From Longitalea arenae (lineage in GTDB: Bacteria > Bacteroidota > Bacteroidia > Chitinophagales > Chitinophagaceae), in assembly GCF_016924755.1 (NCBI RefSeq), contig NZ_JAFFJX010000005.1:434001-498000 (forward strand): DNA of 64,000 nucleotides, given 5' to 3'. The notes beneath the pieces are model-generated. The model had not been told where the DNA came from, did no database searches, and worked only from the letters and a program-made list of their open reading frames with translations. Shown here piece after piece: positions 7,830 to 55,182 of this stretch (positions within the stretch are counted from its first letter, which is position 1; every line of letters begins with the position of its first letter). Both the position numbers and the translations under genes were made by a program.

Positions 7830-8543
7830 TTGACCAACCATTACAAAATATTTCCACTCGGAGATGCGGCGGTTACTTTCGACATGGGCAATCAGATCAG
7901 TGAGGGTTTGAATCAAAAGGCGCTGGCTATGCAGCAATGGCTGCTGGCCCATCCGTTCGAAGGATTGAAGGATTGCCTGGTGGCCTATAGTTCCCTTACC
8001 GTATTATACAACCCGGTCATTATCAAAAAACATTACCAACCCGCAAACACGGTATATGCCTGGGTGGCCGACCGCTTACAGCAGGCATTTGACAATGCCA
8101 GTCAGGTTAAAACAGAAATCCGCGATGTGATCAGGATCCCGGTTTGTTATGAAGAACCCTTTGCGCCCGACCTGGCCGAACTGGCCCGGCAAAGACATCT
8201 TACCCGTGAGGAGGTGATCCACCTGCATACTGCCCCTGTTTATAATGTATACATGATCGGGTTCCTGCCGGGTTTTTCCTATTTGGGTGAAGTGAATGCA
8301 AAGATTGCTGCGCCCCGGAAAGAGCATCCCGTACCTGTGCAGGCCGGAAGCGTTGGAATAGCGGGATCACAAACGGGGATCTATCCTTTGAACAGCCCGG
8401 GCGGCTGGCAGATCGTAGGCCGCACACCACTTAGGTTATTTGAGCCCTTTGTTCCTGAACCGGTCAAGTTAGAAACCGGGGATAAGGTTCAATTTTATGC
8501 CATTACTAAAAACGAGTTCATGGAATACGATCAGCGTTTGTAG
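7830..8543 (+). CDS. pxpB: 5-oxoprolinase subunit PxpB
   Basis: Subunit of the ATP-dependent 5-oxoprolinase PxpABC, which opens 5-oxoproline (pyroglutamate) to glutamate; homologous to KipI and allophanate hydrolase subunit 1. The family signature is clear: FPLGDAAV at the N-terminus, VYNVYMIGFLPGFSYLG, PRKEHPVPVQAGSVGIAG and the NSPGGWQIVGRTP segment. The start is a TTG; the next ATG would remove the conserved FPLGDAAV segment, so TTG is preferred. It is the first gene of pxpB-pxpC-pxpA plus a carrier. The TAG stop begins a TTTGTAG/TTTGTGG word array. Confidence 0.93.
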   Translation: MTNHYKIFPLGDAAVTFDMGNQISEGLNQKALAMQQWLLAHPFEGLKDCLVAYSSLTVLYNPVIIKKHYQPANTVYAWVADRLQQAFDNASQVKTEIRDVIRIPVCYEEPFAPDLAELARQRHLTREEVIHLHTAPVYNVYMIGFLPGFSYLGEVNAKIAAPRKEHPVPVQAGSVGIAGSQTGIYPLNSPGGWQIVGRTPLRLFEPFVPEPVKLETGDKVQFYAITKNEFMEYDQRL

Positions 8544-8695
8544 TTTGTAGTTTGTGGTTTATGGTTTGTGGTTTGTTGTTTATGGTTCATTATTATTCAG
8601 GCTCGCCACTGTTTGGTAACTCAAAAAATCTCAAGAACTCATGAACTCAAGAACTCAGGAACTGAATAACTGAACTGAACAACTGAATAACTCAA
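8536..8695. repeat. Two short-word arrays between pxpB and pxpC
   Basis: The first array (8536-8588) is TTTGTAG, TTTGTGG and TTTATGG copies and contains the pxpB stop codon. The second (about 8615-8695) is made of GAACTCAAG, GAACTGAATAACT and similar 9-10-nt words. Together they fill nearly the whole spacer. Confidence 0.7.
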
Positions 8696-8726
8696 ATAAA
8701 CGAGAACCGGGAATTTAGAAGAAACG

Positions 8727-9719
8727 ATGTCATTAACTATAATCAAACCGGGTTTGTTAGACACGATCCAGGACCTGGGAAGAACTGGATATAGCCGGCT
8801 GGGCATTAATGCCGGCGGGGTGATGGACCGCTATGCTGCCCAGGTAGCCAATATGCTGGTGGGCAATGATACCGGCGAGGCGGTCATAGAGATCCATTTT
8901 CCGGGCGCCCAGTTCCTGTTTGAACAGAATACCCTCATCAGTATTACCGGCGGCGATTTTAACGCCTTACTCAACGATGAACCCATTCCTTTATGGCATC
9001 CGGTGGTGGTACGCAAAAATGCGGTGTTGCATTTTCCCGGGCTGCAATCGGGCAGCCGGTGCTACCTGGCCGTACATGGCGGCTTTTGCGTGAACAAATG
9101 GCTGAACAGTTACAGCACCCATTTAAAGGCCGGCGCCGGCGGCTTTCATGGCCGCAAACTGGAAAAGGGAGATGAGATCTCTTTCCGGGAAAGCCGCATT
9201 TATTTTGCCGGCCTGCTAAAACCGGGGCGGGAGTATGAGGTCCTGAAATGGCAGGTAGATACCGGCAATACCTATCGGCATCCAAACGAGATCTACATGA
9301 TTAAAGGGAATGAATGGGACCAGCTGACCGAAAGCTCGCAACAGCATATGGTGGAAGACAATTTCACCATCCATCCATTCTCAGACCGGATGGGTTACCA
9401 GTTGAAAGGTGTTGACCTGAAACGGTCTATTGACACCGAACTGGTTTCCTCGGGGGTGAGTTTTGGCACTATACAGCTATTGCCCAATGGCCAGCTCATC
9501 GTTTTGATGGCCGATCACCAGACAACGGGCGGCTATCCCCGCATCGGGCATGTGATCTCTGCCCATTTACCGAAGCTGGCGCAATTGAGGCCAAGTGATT
9601 GTATTCATTTCAAAATAACGGATATTGGCACGGCCGAAGACCTCTTGCTTGCCCAGCAACAGGAACTGAATATTTTACAACGCGCCTGTACAGAGCGGCT
9701 GAATAGAATGGTATGTTAA
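8727..9719 (+). CDS. pxpC: 5-oxoprolinase subunit PxpC
   Basis: 330-residue partner of PxpB, homologous to KipA and allophanate hydrolase subunit 2, needed for 5-oxoproline hydrolysis. Diagnostic segments are the N-terminal KPGLLDTIQDLGRTGYSRLG, AGGVMDRYAAQVANMLVGN, CYLAVHGGF and, near the C-terminus, LMADHQTTGGYPRIGHV. Length is normal for the family. It overlaps the next gene, pxpA, by 7 nt, which indicates translational coupling. Confidence 0.95.
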   Translation: MSLTIIKPGLLDTIQDLGRTGYSRLGINAGGVMDRYAAQVANMLVGNDTGEAVIEIHFPGAQFLFEQNTLISITGGDFNALLNDEPIPLWHPVVVRKNAVLHFPGLQSGSRCYLAVHGGFCVNKWLNSYSTHLKAGAGGFHGRKLEKGDEISFRESRIYFAGLLKPGREYEVLKWQVDTGNTYRHPNEIYMIKGNEWDQLTESSQQHMVEDNFTIHPFSDRMGYQLKGVDLKRSIDTELVSSGVSFGTIQLLPNGQLIVLMADHQTTGGYPRIGHVISAHLPKLAQLRPSDCIHFKITDIGTAEDLLLAQQQELNILQRACTERLNRMVC

Positions 9720-10474
9720 GCATAGATATCAATTGCGACATGGGGGAGAGCACCCACCTGTGGCCTTACAATATTAAAAAAGACCTGCAGTTGTTAGCAT
9801 ATGTGAGCAGTATTAACCTGGCTTGCGGCTTTCATGCGGGTGATGCACACACCATGCATAAACTGGTGGCAGCTGCCGTTGATGCCAATATTGCCATCGG
9901 TGCACATCCGGGCTTTCCCGACCGGGAAAATTTTGGCAGAACCGGTATGCACCTGCCGCCGGAGCAGGTCTATGACCTGGTATTGTATCAGATCGGTGCG
10001 CTGGATGCGTTTTTAAAGGTGATGGATACCCGCCTTCATCATGTTAAACCACATGGCGCTTTATACAATATGGCGGCAAAAGAGCCTGCGCTGGCAGAAG
10101 CGATTTGCAAAGCAGTGTATGATTATGACGAAGCGTTAATACTATACGGTTTATCAGGCAGTAAGCTTGTTCAGGCGGCGATAGCCACCGGCCTCAAAAC
10201 CTGCAGTGAAGTGTTTGCTGACCGTACATACCAGGATGATGGACAACTGACGCCACGTACCGATCCGCATGCATTGATCATTGATCCGCAGCAGTCATTG
10301 AACCAGGTGCTGCAAATGGTTACCCGGCGAAGCGTTATCAGTGTACATGGTAAAGAAGTGCCGATTGTTGCCGATACGGTATGTATTCATAGCGATGGAG
10401 AACATGCTATAGATTTCGCCCGTTCTATCAATGAAGCTTTTTTGATCAACGGGATCAAAGTTCAAAGTTTATAA
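9713..10474 (+). CDS. pxpA: 5-oxoprolinase subunit PxpA (LamB/YcsF family)
   Basis: 253-residue LamB/YcsF-family protein, the third subunit of the PxpABC 5-oxoprolinase. It opens with the family hallmark DINCDMGES and carries SINLACGFHAGD, GAHPGFPDRENFGR, HVKPHGALYN and SEVFADRTYQDDGQLTPR. These His, Asp and Glu residues form the presumed active site. It starts inside the pxpC coding end and is followed after 107 bp by the NRAMP-like gene. That order resembles the Bacillus ycsF-ycsG arrangement. Confidence 0.95.
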   Translation: MLSIDINCDMGESTHLWPYNIKKDLQLLAYVSSINLACGFHAGDAHTMHKLVAAAVDANIAIGAHPGFPDRENFGRTGMHLPPEQVYDLVLYQIGALDAFLKVMDTRLHHVKPHGALYNMAAKEPALAEAICKAVYDYDEALILYGLSGSKLVQAAIATGLKTCSEVFADRTYQDDGQLTPRTDPHALIIDPQQSLNQVLQMVTRRSVISVHGKEVPIVADTVCIHSDGEHAIDFARSINEAFLINGIKVQSL

Positions 10475-10581
10475 GGTCATAGTATGTTAGAGATCGCGGA
10501 TAATATTTAGGATAGGAATGGGAGCTTTGCCAACTGCCCACTGCCAATTGCCACTGGTTCTGTTTGATCTAAAACCAACAA

Positions 10582-11781
10582 ATGAAGGGTTCAACCAAGT
10601 CAGCTTTATTGGGCGCTGCATTTCTGATGGCAACTTCCGCCATTGGTCCGGGCTTTATTACCCAAACCACCGTATTTACCCAGCAACTGCTTACCAGTTT
10701 TGGTTTTGTAATATTGGTATCTATTATCCTCGACATTGCCGCCCAGTTAAACGTATGGCGCATTATTGCTGTTACAGAAATGCGGGCGCAGGACCTGGCC
10801 AATAATCTTCTGCCCGGCATGGGTTATGTGCTGGCCATCCTGATCGTGGCCGGGGGCCTGGTCTTCAACATCGGGAATGTAGCCGGGGCCGGACTCGGAA
10901 TGAATGTCATTTATCCATTCGATACCGATCCCGGTCGTCCGGTGATGGGAGCGGCGATCAGTGCCGCCATTGCACTGCTTATCTTCTGGATCAAAGAAGC
11001 CGGTGTGGCCATGGACTGGTTTGCCAAAATACTGGGCTTTATTATGATCGCCCTGACCCTTTATGTGGCCATCAGTTCACAGCCGCCGGTAGGTGAAGCA
11101 ATATATCGCTCCTTTGTACCTGTTAGCATAGATACGACTGCTATTGTAACCCTGGTTGGCGGAACGGTAGGCGGGTATATCAGTTTTGCCGGCGCCCACC
11201 GCCTGCTCGATGCCGGTATAAAAGGAGAACAACAGTTACCGCAGGTAACCCGTAGCAGTGTAAGCGCTATCTTACTGGCTTCGTTAATGCGGATCTTATT
11301 ATTCATGGCGGCCTTGGGCGTGGTGACGCATGGCGGCGTATTGAATAGTAAAAATCCTGCAGCTTCGGTATTTCAGATCGCAGCCGGTGACGCCGGTTAC
11401 AAAATATTTGGTATTGTATTATGGAGTGCCGCCATCACTTCAGTGGTAGGTTCGGCATATACTTCCATCTCCTTTTTGCGAACCCTGCACCCGGTGTTCG
11501 ACAAATACCAGCGGCTTATTACCACCTTGTTCATCCTGATCTCTATGGGCATTTTTGCATTTCTGCGACAGGGGGCCGTGCAATGGCTGGTGGTAGCCGG
11601 CGCCCTGAATGGATTGATCTTACCTTTGTCGCTGGCCCTTTTGTTAGCTGCTGTGTTCAAGAAGAAGCTCATGGGCGATTATAAACATCCGGTATGGTTA
11701 GCTGTTGCGGGGTGGATCGTGGTTGTTATCATGAGTATTATGGGTGCCACAGCCATATTAAGCCTAACGCTTAACGCTTAG
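10582..11781 (+). CDS. NRAMP-family transporter lacking the DPGN metal motif
   Basis: 399-residue integral membrane protein of the NRAMP fold with about 11 hydrophobic segments. The first helix keeps IGPGF, but at the position of the canonical metal-binding DPGN it reads TQQL. The helix normally carrying the Met-Pro-His ligand reads GGTVGGYISFAGAHR. It is therefore unlikely to carry divalent metals as classical MntH does. Its place directly after pxpBCA suggests import of 5-oxoproline or a related acid, or an accessory role; this is inference from gene neighbourhood. The last codons and TAG stop lie in a small AACGCTT repeat. Confidence 0.85.
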   Translation: MKGSTKSALLGAAFLMATSAIGPGFITQTTVFTQQLLTSFGFVILVSIILDIAAQLNVWRIIAVTEMRAQDLANNLLPGMGYVLAILIVAGGLVFNIGNVAGAGLGMNVIYPFDTDPGRPVMGAAISAAIALLIFWIKEAGVAMDWFAKILGFIMIALTLYVAISSQPPVGEAIYRSFVPVSIDTTAIVTLVGGTVGGYISFAGAHRLLDAGIKGEQQLPQVTRSSVSAILLASLMRILLFMAALGVVTHGGVLNSKNPAASVFQIAAGDAGYKIFGIVLWSAAITSVVGSAYTSISFLRTLHPVFDKYQRLITTLFILISMGIFAFLRQGAVQWLVVAGALNGLILPLSLALLLAAVFKKKLMGDYKHPVWLAVAGWIVVVIMSIMGATAILSLTLNA

Positions 11782-51164: not shown

Positions 51165-51208
51165 AAAGCAAGGCGGGTCCGGCCATTTGGCCGGACCCGC
51201 CTTGCTTT
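51165..51208. terminator. Bidirectional terminator, perfect 20-bp stem
   Basis: The 20-nt left arm (51165-51184) is exactly complementary to 51189-51208 around the loop ATTT. It lies between two convergent genes, 21 bp after one stop and 12 bp before the other. Confidence 0.9.
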
Positions 51209-51220
51209 CTATCGTTATTT

Positions 51221-54200
51221 TTATTGAATGACCAGTTTACCACTGGTTGATTGACCTTTGCTGCCCTGGATGCTGTAATAATACATGCCGCTTAAGGAAC
51301 CCGGCAGGATTATACGCTGATTACCGGCAGCGAGCACCCGGCTGAACACCAATCTTCCCATGGCATCATTTATTCTTAATACCCCGCCATTTTCACTGCA
51401 AACCACCTGGATGTTCCCGCCCTGCTTAATTACATTGGGATAGAGCGCAGTTTGAAGTTTACCCGTTTCCAGCAAGATGGTATTGGAATAGTATACGGAA
51501 TCGCTATCAGTCACCTTAATGCGATAGTAGTTCTTTCCATTATCCGGCTGTTCATGTTTGAAGTCGAACAGGAAGCTGCAGGCGTCCCAGCCTTTGGGTT
51601 TGCCAATGCTGCTGAAATTAATTCCATTGTGGCTTTGTTCAATATCGAATATAGCCCATTTGCGTAAACACCTGAAGATCCAGCTCAATACATTGGCCCT
51701 TCCCTGAGGGTGGCCGCTAAAGTTCTCAACCAGTAAAGGTGTGCCCTTACGGTTGGTTTGAACGATAAAACCGCCAAAACCGCTGGCATCAAAGGTTATT
51801 TCCCACCGGCTGGCCGTTGCATTCCATACAATGTCGCTGTCTTCCGGATCGATGAGGGCCGCATCGCCGCTGTAGCTGCAGGGAAGTCCGCTACCATTAC
51901 TGCTGCTGCCTTCATAATAGGCGATACGTACATTTGCCTTACCCGCGGCATCGGTTGGATGGGCCGGCAGGTTCAGGAAGCTTAAGAAGTCGTTATTGAA
52001 TGCCGTGAATTCGGCCTGTGTAAAGAACAGGGTGACCCTGCCTGTAGCCGATGCTGCATTGGTGGCAGGCAGTAACTGGTAATGCCTTGCTACAAAGGGT
52101 ATTCCGCAATCCTGCGGCACCCTCGATTCGATCCAAACATTTGCAGTGACTGTTCCACTCACCGGATTTGCACCCGCCGGCGTCAGCTGTGCGATCAGGC
52201 GGCAGCTGCTATCCACGAACAGGTGGGTAGTGGAAATATCGCGGATATTTTTGGTGTTCCTGGTGACCAGGTTGCCTGTCATGAGCGGATGACTGTACAC
52301 TATAGAGCGGATCTTATAGTCAAAGCCCGGGTTTACCCAGCTAATGCCATCTACGGTGGTGAGTGAACGATTATCCAGGCTGGTGCTTTCACGGCGCAGA
52401 CTCCAGTTCGCCGTGCTGCCCGAGTCGCGGTAAACGACTATATAATAATCGGCGCCATTCGTAATAGCAATATTGAAAGCGCTCAGGTCAACATAATTCC
52501 ACGAATAAGCGCTGACGCTGGTATCGGGCAGTGATAATTTCGCCAGTAAAGCGCCTGGCACACCGGCACTATCAGCGCGCACTTCCAGCGCCAGTGCGGT
52601 TTTTGTAATAGACGTATGATAATAGGCGCCACCCAAACGGCCGCTTATATCAGGTGTAAAGCGTACAGCTATACGCTGGATGCTGAGCGTTACCCCGGCA
52701 TCTTCCGAAGTTAGATTAGACGCATCGTATTGATAGGTTTTGCGGTTCACCGGTGAACAATTGAACGCAGCGCCAACGGCCCGGTAGATATCCAGGCGGC
52801 CATACCCCCAGGTGGTATTAGGCGTGGGGCCGGCAGCTTCGGTCAATGAGTCTTTGGTCGTATTCGAAAACAGCAGGTTTCGCAGCTGCGAAACGGTTGC
52901 GGTTGGATTGGCCTGTAAGAGCAAAGCTACCGCGCCGGTAACCACGGGCGCCGACATACTGGTTCCCTGGTTCTTACGATACAAACCAGGATAAATAATA
53001 TCTGTTACTGCAGCTGAACTGTTGGTTGAAAATGCGGAGATCACATGTTGGCCTATAGCGGCAATCTCTGGTTTTAATACCCCATCGCGGCGGGGACCAT
53101 GAGAACTGAAACTTGCAATGGCATCCATTCGGGCCGTGGTGCCGTAATAAGCGCCATTGGCGCCATATGAGTACCAGGCAGGCCTGCCCACATAAGCGGC
53201 TGCCGTGATGGCCGAAGTAGCATTGCCCGGCGAACCTACCAGATAGTCGTTGTTGCCCTCGACCAGCGTCAATGCAAAGAAGGCAGGGTTCCTGTAATAC
53301 ATCCAGCCATGTAATGACAATGTATTGGCGGTATTGTTGGTGAGCGTAAGCGTCCACGTACCCATGGGATTGGTACTATTGGTTCCATTCCTTTGAACAT
53401 AAACATCTACATAACGGTCGCCGTTACCTACCTCAATTTGATTGCTCAGATATACATTAAAAGCATTGCCCATTACCTGGCCCAGCACCGACTGGTTGGC
53501 ATGGGCAGTTACGGAACCGCCTGTGCCGGGGGCAGTAAAAGTAGCTGAAATATTACTGCTATTGTTTACGTACACCCGGTACTGGAACAGGTCAGGCGCT
53601 GTAACAGCAGGCACATTAAAAGAAACTGTTCCGGCAGCGCCCCCTGCCAGCGACAACTGGTTATGGATATTGCTGCCATGATCGTTACCGGCTGAAATGA
53701 CCACGGCACGTCCCGGTCCGGAAGCAGTAAAATCATCTACAACCAGTTCATATTCCCGGGTACCATCATGGGGGCCAAACTGACTGCCTATGCTCATGTT
53801 CAGCACAACCGGTTTGCCCAGGCTATTGGCCAGGTTCTTTAAATAAGCGATGCCATTAATAACATTGGTATTCGAAAAAGACCCGTTGCCACCCTTAATG
53901 ACCACAATGTCGGCCTCAGGCGCCATACCGGTGTATTTGCGGGTAAGGGGCAATGCGGCGCCATTACCAGCGGCTGTGCCGGCCACATGGGTGCCATGTC
54001 CGTTAATGTCGCGCTCGCGAACATAGTTGGTAGGCGTGCCATCCAATTCATCATTGATCTGCTCGCGGGTATATTCAACGCCATAACCCATGCCCACCGG
54101 CGAAACTTCGCCGGTGATGGGGCTAATGGTTTGATCCCAGATGCGCAGAATGCGGCTTTTCGTGGTGTCATCGGGGTCGCGGAAATCCGGATGTTTCCAG

Positions 54201-54766
54201 TCGATACCCGAATCGAAGATGGCAACGATCACCCCTTTGCCCTTATACACCGTATTATTCAATTTGCCCTGGTGCAAAAGGGTGGCGCCGCTGCTGGCAA
54301 CGGCAATGTCGTTATGCAATTCGTCCATCACCGGCGCTGCGATATAATGAACGCCGGGCAAATTCGAGAGCTGTGTTATTTGATCCGGCGTGACCCATGC
54401 CGTTACGAAATGCGGGTATACCGCATTCACCAGCACGCCATTGTTACGAAGCGCATTTACATCGGAAGTATAAATAATGCAATCGTAGCGTTCACCGGCA
54501 GGTTGACCCGGCGCTACACGTACCTGAGTAGGCGTGGTCTTGAAAGCGGGAGAATAACTGCCCGTCACCTGTCGCGCGGCAGGTAGATGGGTCAACACGA
54601 ATTTAAACGCGGGATCGATCTTATCTTCCGGGGAGCGGTTCTGCGAATAACCGGTTAAGTATAACAACACCGAAAGAAAAGTGAAGAGGATGGATCGGTT
54701 CGGAAAGAATGTTGAGACCGGAAAATGCACAAGAAGGGCATGACCCTTTTGGGTAGATTTTCTCAT
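51221..54766 (-). CDS. Secreted subtilase (S8) with T9SS sorting domain
   Basis: 1181 residues. A hydrophobic export signal ends near YLTGYSQ. A pro-region of about 110 residues (notably 94-151, YDCIIYT onward) precedes the catalytic domain with Asp185 (VAIFDSGID), His260 (DINGHGTHVAGT), oxyanion-type Asn361 (VVISAGND) and Ser603 (GTSMSAPVV); a PA-like insertion lies between 380 and 500. Beta-rich modules follow (about 680-1050). The last about 80 residues (ALYPNVIKQGGNIQVV, GVLRINDAMGRLVF, MYYYSIQG) form a type A C-terminal sorting domain, so it is exported by T9SS. An upstream gene encodes a copy of the pro-region. Confidence 0.95.
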   Translation of the reverse strand: MRKSTQKGHALLVHFPVSTFFPNRSILFTFLSVLLYLTGYSQNRSPEDKIDPAFKFVLTHLPAARQVTGSYSPAFKTTPTQVRVAPGQPAGERYDCIIYTSDVNALRNNGVLVNAVYPHFVTAWVTPDQITQLSNLPGVHYIAAPVMDELHNDIAVASSGATLLHQGKLNNTVYKGKGVIVAIFDSGIDWKHPDFRDPDDTTKSRILRIWDQTISPITGEVSPVGMGYGVEYTREQINDELDGTPTNYVRERDINGHGTHVAGTAAGNGAALPLTRKYTGMAPEADIVVIKGGNGSFSNTNVINGIAYLKNLANSLGKPVVLNMSIGSQFGPHDGTREYELVVDDFTASGPGRAVVISAGNDHGSNIHNQLSLAGGAAGTVSFNVPAVTAPDLFQYRVYVNNSSNISATFTAPGTGGSVTAHANQSVLGQVMGNAFNVYLSNQIEVGNGDRYVDVYVQRNGTNSTNPMGTWTLTLTNNTANTLSLHGWMYYRNPAFFALTLVEGNNDYLVGSPGNATSAITAAAYVGRPAWYSYGANGAYYGTTARMDAIASFSSHGPRRDGVLKPEIAAIGQHVISAFSTNSSAAVTDIIYPGLYRKNQGTSMSAPVVTGAVALLLQANPTATVSQLRNLLFSNTTKDSLTEAAGPTPNTTWGYGRLDIYRAVGAAFNCSPVNRKTYQYDASNLTSEDAGVTLSIQRIAVRFTPDISGRLGGAYYHTSITKTALALEVRADSAGVPGALLAKLSLPDTSVSAYSWNYVDLSAFNIAITNGADYYIVVYRDSGSTANWSLRRESTSLDNRSLTTVDGISWVNPGFDYKIRSIVYSHPLMTGNLVTRNTKNIRDISTTHLFVDSSCRLIAQLTPAGANPVSGTVTANVWIESRVPQDCGIPFVARHYQLLPATNAASATGRVTLFFTQAEFTAFNNDFLSFLNLPAHPTDAAGKANVRIAYYEGSSSNGSGLPCSYSGDAALIDPEDSDIVWNATASRWEITFDASGFGGFIVQTNRKGTPLLVENFSGHPQGRANVLSWIFRCLRKWAIFDIEQSHNGINFSSIGKPKGWDACSFLFDFKHEQPDNGKNYYRIKVTDSDSVYYSNTILLETGKLQTALYPNVIKQGGNIQVVCSENGGVLRINDAMGRLVFSRVLAAGNQRIILPGSLSGMYYYSIQGSKGQSTSGKLVIQ

Positions 54767-54852
54767 AGACAGGTATTTGATTAAAGGTTAATGGAGATAA
54801 GCAATTTAAGGAAAAGTATTAAACACTGTTTCGGGGACTTTGGGTAAGTTGG

Positions 54853-55182
54853 TCATTTACGATGCATTTTGAGGTATTCCGGCGCTTCAATGAACTTTAC
54901 CTCGGGCATAGCCGCTGCTGTCAATATCTGTTGTAGGGTAGCCACAGCCGTAACTGCGCGCGGCGACGAAGTGCGAACGGTAATGCCCATTTTTCTGAGT
55001 GCCTCAGGTTGGGTGGTATAGATAATACAATCATATTTTTTTAGTAAGGTGTCGGAGGGAGACCTTTCGGCGATCAGCAGCCTGAATGGCAGGTCGATCT
55101 TCTTATTGGAATTGTGTTGTGCCCATAAGCGGCCGTGTATAAAGGAAAAAAACAACACTGCTATTATTGCCCGGGCAAACAT
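54853..55182 (-). CDS. Stand-alone secreted homologue of subtilase pro-region
   Basis: 109 residues: a signal peptide (IIAVLFFSFIHGRLWAQ) and an 85-residue mature part. Residues 50-107 align without gaps to residues 94-151 of the downstream subtilase; I count 25 identities in 58 columns, including YDCIIYT, ALR, VTA and the IxAP near the end. It is on the same strand, 86 bp upstream of the protease. By analogy with the I9/subtilisin propeptide fold it could act as an inhibitor, a folding helper in trans, or an immunity factor for the cell's own protease. The function is inference; the homology is seen in the sequence. Confidence 0.75.
   Translation of the reverse strand: MFARAIIAVLFFSFIHGRLWAQHNSNKKIDLPFRLLIAERSPSDTLLKKYDCIIYTTQPEALRKMGITVRTSSPRAVTAVATLQQILTAAAMPEVKFIEAPEYLKMHRK

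What the first reader, a model, noticed from the sequence alone, without database searches (positions are those of the whole stretch)
51221..55182. Free-standing secreted copy of a subtilase pro-region encoded next to the subtilase
Seen: the 109-residue secreted protein (54853-55182) aligns over residues 50-107 without gaps to residues 94-151 of the adjacent S8 protease, with 25 identities in 58 columns by my hand count, including YDCIIYT and VTA. Known: subtilisin pro-regions fold and inhibit their enzymes, and single-domain I9 inhibitors exist in fungi and some bacteria. Inference: a duplicated pro-region acts in trans as inhibitor, folding helper or self-protection for a T9SS-exported protease. 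An in-cis pro-region is also kept, so the system would have two tiers.
Basis: partly seen in the sequence, partly recalled or inferred. Interest (0 to 1): 0.78.

Follow-up and report, generated by a model that had tools for sequence, protein, structure and literature searches.

The report
Stand-alone protease prodomain beside its protease
Next to a secreted protein-cutting enzyme, this bacterium carries a small exported protein that is a free copy of the enzyme's own built-in safety catch, and distant relatives in the same phylum keep the same two-gene arrangement, so it is probably a second lock that protects the cell from its own enzyme.

Summary
Confirmed and extended. The 109-aa secreted protein (54853-55182, -) is homologous over its length to the pre-pro region of the adjacent S8 protease (25/58 identities). 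Its predicted fold is a subtilisin prodomain (pLDDT 87; best Foldseek hit the CspB prodomain, E 5e-3). The protease has Csp-like architecture, a conserved triad and a type IX sorting tail. The pair is not local. A profile made only from in-cis pro-regions, run on 3,480 ORFs around 58 related S8 genes, gave 16 distinct hits at E<1e-3 (one decayed, one frameshifted); all 16 abut an S8 on its strand. Iteration gave partners for 24 of 58, plus 2 decayed copies. Outside Chitinophagaceae most look like lipoproteins. 23 of 24 reach the P1 column of a cleaved prodomain. Best reading: a trans-acting prodomain in the envelope that plugs its cognate protease's active site, a second tier over the in-cis prodomain. 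Inhibition is untested; 32 of 58 S8 genes lack a detectable partner. Precedents exist (CspB prodomain in trans, Aeromonas ORF2, SUB1-ProM, potempins): a new variant of a known kind.

The parts
54853..55182 (-). stand-alone prodomain gene, 109 aa
   Evidence: orthologues
55117..55182 (-). predicted Sec signal peptide, residues 1-22 (ends ..LWAQ); no lipobox
   Evidence: read from the sequence by motif (no signal-peptide program was run); same type in G007 and G003
54883..55035 (-). prodomain core of the small protein, residues 50-100
54856..54897 (-). C-terminal tail of the small protein, residues 96-109, expected to enter the active-site cleft; acidic residue at +4, P1 column at +12
   Evidence: spacing from the anchor Val, compared with the BPN' prosegment
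54767..54852 (-). 86-bp intergenic gap, no terminator-like site listed
51221..54766 (-). Csp-like S8 protease, 1181 aa
54314..54640 (-). in-cis pro-region of the protease, residues 43-151
54311..54316 (-). predicted pro/mature junction, H151|N152
   Evidence: inference from the conserved ND motif and the BPN' spacing
53507..54241 (-). first part of the S8 catalytic domain, with D185 and H257
53282..53680 (-). jelly-roll-like domain inserted in the catalytic domain (residues about 363-495)
52733..53254 (-). second part of the S8 catalytic domain, with S603
   Evidence: (mycosin model, residues 505-678)
51224..51445 (-). T9SS type A sorting domain, residues 1108-1181
   Evidence: TIGR04183 31.2 bits, cut-off 23; PF18962 16.4 bits, below its cut-off 27
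51165..51208 (-). terminator-like hairpin (20-pair stem) after the protease gene

Best explanation
The small protein is a free-standing prodomain that works in trans on the protease encoded 86 bp downstream. Both have signal peptides and should reach the periplasm. The protease folds with the help of its own in-cis prodomain and processes itself at about H151|N152. The stand-alone prodomain then docks on the same face of the catalytic domain and puts its C-terminal tail into the S sites like a cleavage product. This keeps prematurely matured enzyme silent in the periplasm until the type IX system exports it; where the stand-alone copy is a lipoprotein, it guards the cell's own membrane. Shown: homology, predicted fold, genetic pairing, conserved tail length, T9SS tail, conserved triad. 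Inferred: export route, binding, inhibition, place and time of action.
Confidence: 0.6

Rival explanations
1. It is mainly a folding helper in trans: it raises the yield of active protease, as Aeromonas ORF2 does for ASP, and any inhibition is incidental.
For: CspB prodomain in trans restores folding (PMC3567191 passages); ORF2 is required for active ASP (PMC5638518 passages); similar fold.
Against: All 24 partner S8 frames have 128-167 residues ahead of the catalytic profile match; 17 of 24 match the in-cis pro-region profile at E<1e-3 (13 of these are in the profile itself), while 7 (G628, G702, G791, G778, G724b, G636c, G672) match it only weakly, E 0.18-10, so the in-cis chaperone is clear in most but not in all. 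The S8 stays intact in G004, G001 and G002 without an intact partner. Lipoprotein-like signals in most distant copies suit a guard better than a folding catalyst.
Confidence: 0.2
2. It is a relic: a truncated tandem duplicate without function.
For: Decayed copies in G004 and G009, none seen in G001 and G002; weaker constraint than on the in-cis region.
Against: Stand-alones lie beside the S8 in 3 genera of the own family and, in the iterated survey, in 14 genera of 11 other families (6 of these genera already at E<1e-3 with the in-cis-only profile); conserved signal, C-terminal length and acidic column; dN/dS 0.25, 0.39 and 0.36 in the three genus pairs.
Confidence: 0.07
3. It binds something other than the adjacent protease, for example other subtilases (own or of competitors), or acts as a regulator or export adaptor.
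For: Stand-alone I9 proteins of fungi and plants inhibit subtilisin-like proteases without being part of them (PMC6993865 passage). In the window the +4 acidic residue is present in the stand-alone but is Ala in the partner's own pro-region, so the two need not be equivalent.
Against: 13 of 13 whole-genome short-frame hits sit beside an S8; the A3 profile finds no homologue near the 7 other S8 genes of the genome.
Confidence: 0.13

Closest known systems
CspB/CspA/CspC subtilases of Clostridia and their prodomain (PF18425, PDB 4i0w)
   Same: Protease: beta domain inside the S8 domain and a prodomain of the same kind. Prodomain given in trans experimentally folds and blocks CspB (PMC3567191 passages).
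   Different: In the passages seen the trans prodomain is a laboratory construct; here it is a natural gene, and the partner is a T9SS cargo of a Bacteroidota species.
Aeromonas sobria ASP and its external chaperone ORF2 (PDB 3wqb)
   Different: ASP is called propeptide-deficient in the title of a cited paper (seen in the reference list; that paper itself is not held). ORF2 lies downstream of its protease. It is not among the sequence matches of the pro-region profile in the PDB.
SUB1-ProM of Plasmodium; POIA1, yeast peptidase B inhibitor, Arabidopsis SPI-1, TgMIC5
   Same: Stand-alone propeptide-like inhibitors of subtilases; SUB1-ProM lies beside subtilase genes and SUB1 keeps its own propeptide (PMC6993865 passages).
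   Different: Eukaryotic; according to that paper the three classical examples lack significant sequence similarity to propeptides, whereas here homology to the neighbour's pro-region is plain.
Potempins of Tannerella forsythia
   Same: Small lipoprotein genes directly upstream of T9SS proteases in Bacteroidota, reported as inhibitors specific for the downstream enzyme (PMC7296668 passages; PMC4404884 passages).
   Different: Beta-barrel folds unrelated to propeptides (recalled; not seen in a call); proteases of several families.
SpeB-Spi of Streptococcus pyogenes
   Same: Inhibitor described as a propeptide analogue, encoded beside the protease (PMC2873492 passages).
   Different: Cysteine protease of family C10.

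Membership tests
[quoted passage not shown]
   (order of elements in the model); for matches
Subtilisin prodomain / I9-like fold | match to Pfam PF05922 (Inhibitor_I9) above its cut-off | tested here: not met
   E up to 10 (filters drop weak matches): not listed for P0001 or P0002
CspB_prodomain (PF18425) | match above the curated cut-off of 25 bits | tested here: not met
   P0002 has no match. 11 of 14 members of A3 match at E<=1, best E 2.1e-4; for scale, 21.2 bits gave E 2.9e-4
Stand-alone propeptide-like subtilase inhibitor (POIA1, SUB1-ProM kind) | separate gene product, not part of an enzyme precursor | tested here: met
   own start, signal peptide and stop codon, 86-bp gap
Stand-alone propeptide-like subtilase inhibitor (POIA1, SUB1-ProM kind) | C-terminal tail long enough to reach S1 | tested here: met
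   14 residues after the anchor Val; P1 column at 12
Stand-alone propeptide-like subtilase inhibitor (POIA1, SUB1-ProM kind) | inhibits a subtilase | not testable with these tools
   no assay; no complex prediction offered
ORF2-type external chaperone | partner subtilase lacks its own propeptide | tested here: not met
   P0001 keeps residues 43-151 as pro-region
Potempin | gene directly upstream of a T9SS-exported protease | tested here: met
Potempin | lipoprotein signal | tested here: not met
   no lipobox in P0002 (sequence); found in many distant stand-alones
Csp-type subtilase (the partner) | jelly-roll domain inserted in the S8 domain | tested here: met
Csp-type subtilase (the partner) | NCBIfam Csp models above their cut-off | tested here: not met
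   CspBA 132.4 bits, cut-off 1250; CspC 108.7, cut-off 675
T9SS type A cargo (the partner) | TIGR04183 above cut-off | tested here: met
   31.2 bits, cut-off 23

The most novel reading that the evidence does not exclude
Across the phylum, Csp-like T9SS subtilases are repeatedly accompanied by a stand-alone copy of their own kind of prodomain, mostly soluble in Chitinophagaceae and lipoprotein-like elsewhere. It forms a two-tier zymogen system: an in-cis prodomain for folding and a trans prodomain as an envelope guard. The arrangement may have arisen more than once and fills the same genetic slot as the unrelated potempins.
Probability: 0.5. Interest if true: 0.72.

Novelty: new variant of a known kind. 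Interest (0 to 1): 0.62.

Why it matters
Proteases exported by the type IX system are thought to fold in the periplasm first, and for gingipains a review credits the N-terminal prodomain with keeping them inactive there (PMC10202324, passage). A homologous trans prodomain beside the enzyme, recurring across a phylum, would be a natural and easily assayed second tier. It would be a bacterial counterpart of SUB1-ProM and a homology-based parallel to the potempins. It also offers natural pairs of cis and trans prodomains for one enzyme, with which to measure what separates a folding prodomain from a lasting inhibitor.

Tried and rejected
Modelling the pro-region on the catalytic domain: the S8 fragment 43-690 gave pLDDT 44.7, so nothing is said about docking; only the inserted beta domain was used. 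No two-chain prediction is offered.

Profile of the pro-regions against the PDB sequences: one chance match only (pollen allergen, E 1.2).

Other S8 genes of the genome as hosts of the same arrangement: the A3 profile finds nothing near the 7 others. One search's motif filter recognised only two of the seven enzymes, so one search took them by position and compared each N-terminus with the ORFs around it: besides self-matches there was one weak hit (E 0.089, 35 residues, L102), taken as chance.

Number of origins: in the first tree (23 rows, 59 columns) and the phylum tree (72 of 84 rows, 54 columns; 12 dropped beforehand as fragments, near copy, badly aligned or off-clade) Chitinophagaceae stand-alones fall among Chitinophagaceae in-cis regions, and well-supported branches force at least 3 label changes. 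With 29 of 84 rows dropped (long branches too), they force 2, and a single origin is not rejected (p-AU 0.108). Left open.

Stand-alones hold the +4 acidic residue more often than in-cis regions (21/24 against 32/53, Fisher p 0.019): rows are related, so not used as proof.

Promoter scan: 3 sigma-70-like sites against 6.5 expected in shuffles, uninformative; terminator-like sites 7 against 5.0 expected, so only the absence from the gap and the 20-pair stem are quoted.

Literature: searches aimed at a stand-alone prodomain or I9 lipoprotein in Bacteroidota showed no description of this pair in their listings; only open-licence papers are held, so this is no proof of absence.
Full report
THE OBSERVATION. 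The ungapped alignment of residues 50-107 with 94-151 has 25 identities in 58 columns; BLASTP gives 52.4 bits, E 4e-13 for the pair; the local score of 119 compares with mean 30.4, sd 4.2 and maximum 50 in 500 shuffles. Aligned with orthologues, homology reaches further: a K-I-D-x-x-F motif near the mature N-terminus is shared. The three intact small proteins of the genus end two residues after a His column where all seven genus proteases have Leu-His followed by Asn-Asp.

THE GENUS. The small gene is intact in 3 (gaps of 86, 84 and 88 bp to the S8 start), decayed in G004 and G009, and not seen in the 700 bp upstream in G001 and G002. Mature small proteins show dN/dS of 0.25, 0.39 and 0.36 in the three pairs; for G000-G007 the in-cis pro-region has 0.09 and the catalytic domain 0.05. 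So it is under purifying selection, more weakly than its in-cis counterpart, and can be lost.

THE FAMILY AND THE PHYLUM. Profile searches of 294 and 394 genomes of the family found matches in 14 and 18; a search of 298 genomes of the order found matches in 3, all of the own family. Stand-alone copies upstream of the S8 also occur in Segetibacter aerophilus (G129), G295, G571 (all genus code g120) and a MAG contig (G108); 7 of the 10 S8 genes examined (G102 set aside as off-clade) had none in 1.5 kb. A search of 296 genomes spread over the phylum gave further stand-alone hits beside S8 genes in other families. In some searches together, 13 of 13 distinct hits with a short open frame (at most 157 aa; decayed G004 and a piece of frameshifted G865 included) lie beside an S8; two longer frames of 264 and 278 aa are in-cis regions of a broken and a contig-cut S8.

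SYSTEMATIC TEST. A profile of the first part of the catalytic domain found 41 S8 genes in 34 of 296 phylum genomes at E<=1e-15; with 17 further family genes that makes 58. They are called Csp-like here because of this profile; the inserted beta domain was tested only in the window's protease. A profile built from 31 in-cis pro-regions only, with no stand-alone sequence in it, was run on 3,480 ORFs of at least 55 codons in the fetched regions. At E<1e-3 there are 16 distinct hits, and all 16 lie on the S8 strand within 250 bp of the S8 start or end, a class holding 139 of the 3,480 ORFs (hypergeometric 1.8e-23; sequences are related, so this only shows that chance is not the cause). At E<0.02 it is 19 of 20; the twentieth (G672) is an open frame that overlaps the S8 end by 19 bases. 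Three of these proteins (G823, G611, G720) had been seen by eye before this test. Iteration raised the set to 24 S8 genes with a neighbour: 20 upstream, 3 downstream, and G865 whose upstream copy is frameshifted. Five of them (G612, G628, G791, G702, G778) rest on the iterated profile. Decayed G004 appears in the same search and G009. The lowest E for an ORF elsewhere is 0.24 and 0.28 (second round). 32 of 58 have none detected, counting the second of two tandem S8 genes in G724 that share one copy. By the codes, the copies lie in 3 genera of the own family and 14 genera of 11 other families. All regions were fetched around S8 genes, so cannot see remote copies; searched whole genomes.

ANATOMY ACROSS THE SET. 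Of the 17 copies outside Chitinophagaceae, a simple lipobox pattern marks 9, and by eye 16 have a Cys right after the hydrophobic stretch; G612 has none. Of the 7 in Chitinophagaceae, one (G108) has a lipobox. The number of residues after the anchor Val of the last strand is 10-24, median 14 (24 copies, with G004 and one G865 piece left out). In the BPN' prosegment the same anchor is followed by 12 residues to its last residue, Tyr77 (sequence confirmed). 23 of 24 stand-alones reach that column and 20 of 24 end 0-4 residues beyond it; in cis the next two residues are Asn-Asp in 27 of 53 (5 of 58 rows left out as fragments or badly aligned). The stand-alones thus have the length of a cleaved prodomain. 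21 of 24 have Glu or Asp at +4, the Glu69 column; the window's in-cis region has Ala there and its stand-alone Glu. TIGR04183 is over its cut-off in 19 of 20 other partner S8 tails, G778 falling short at 20.4 bits (20 of the 23 other partners were given). All 24 partner frames have 128-167 residues before the catalytic match; 17 match the in-cis profile at E<1e-3 (13 are in it by construction), 7 only weakly.

MECHANISM. Precedent comes from the nearest characterised enzyme: CspB's prodomain supplied in trans restores folding, prevents labelling of the active site, and no longer does so when the last three residues are removed (PMC3567191, passages). Aeromonas ORF2 does both jobs for its subtilase (PMC5638518, passages). 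SUB1-ProM shows that a stand-alone copy can coexist with an in-cis propeptide (PMC6993865, passages). Potempins show that the slot directly upstream of a T9SS protease can hold a small lipoprotein inhibitor (PMC7296668, PMC4404884, passages). Together with the retained in-cis domain and the dispensability of the stand-alone gene, this favours a guard inhibitor over an obligatory chaperone. Co-expression is likely but unproven: no terminator-like site is listed in the 86-bp gap, and one with a 20-pair stem follows the protease.

NOVELTY. Every element is known somewhere: prodomain inhibition in trans, stand-alone I9 proteins, a slot with a protective inhibitor. What the library searches did not show is a recognisable homologue of the partner's own prodomain as a separate, often lipoprotein-like, gene beside T9SS subtilases across a phylum (open-licence papers only). 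I rate it a new variant of a known kind.

Noticed in passing
L092 7010-7385 (reverse-complement orientation; G261, contig length of UBA1930), 64 bp upstream of its S8: The slot of the stand-alone prodomain holds an unrelated 122-aa secreted protein that looks like an OB-fold (Pfam tRNA_anti-codon 13.4 bits, E 0.076, below cut-off). An OB-fold there recalls some potempins (recalled, not from a call).
   Followed up: partly
L026 (G009) 8354-11729: In G009 both partners are damaged: the small gene has stops, and the protease frame ends at residue 1124, inside the sorting domain, close to the contig end.
   Followed up: partly
L013 1025-1219 (G004): A group II intron reverse-transcriptase-like fragment lies just upstream of the decayed small gene in Niastella soli (identified by eye).
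   Followed up: no
L061 (JADCRZ010000099.1): A contig labelled as a Williamsia MAG carries a T9SS-tailed protease and a stand-alone prodomain like those of Chitinophagaceae, and its length equals a contig of G108 in that family, so the label is doubtful.
   Followed up: no
L105 3666-6326 (G000:C9): One open frame of the same genome appears to join a caspase-like N-terminus to an S8 domain (caspase part judged by eye).
   Followed up: no
L147 (G724) and L146 (G636): In these genomes a lipoprotein-like stand-alone prodomain lies downstream of its S8, and in G724 it follows two tandem S8 genes.
   Followed up: partly
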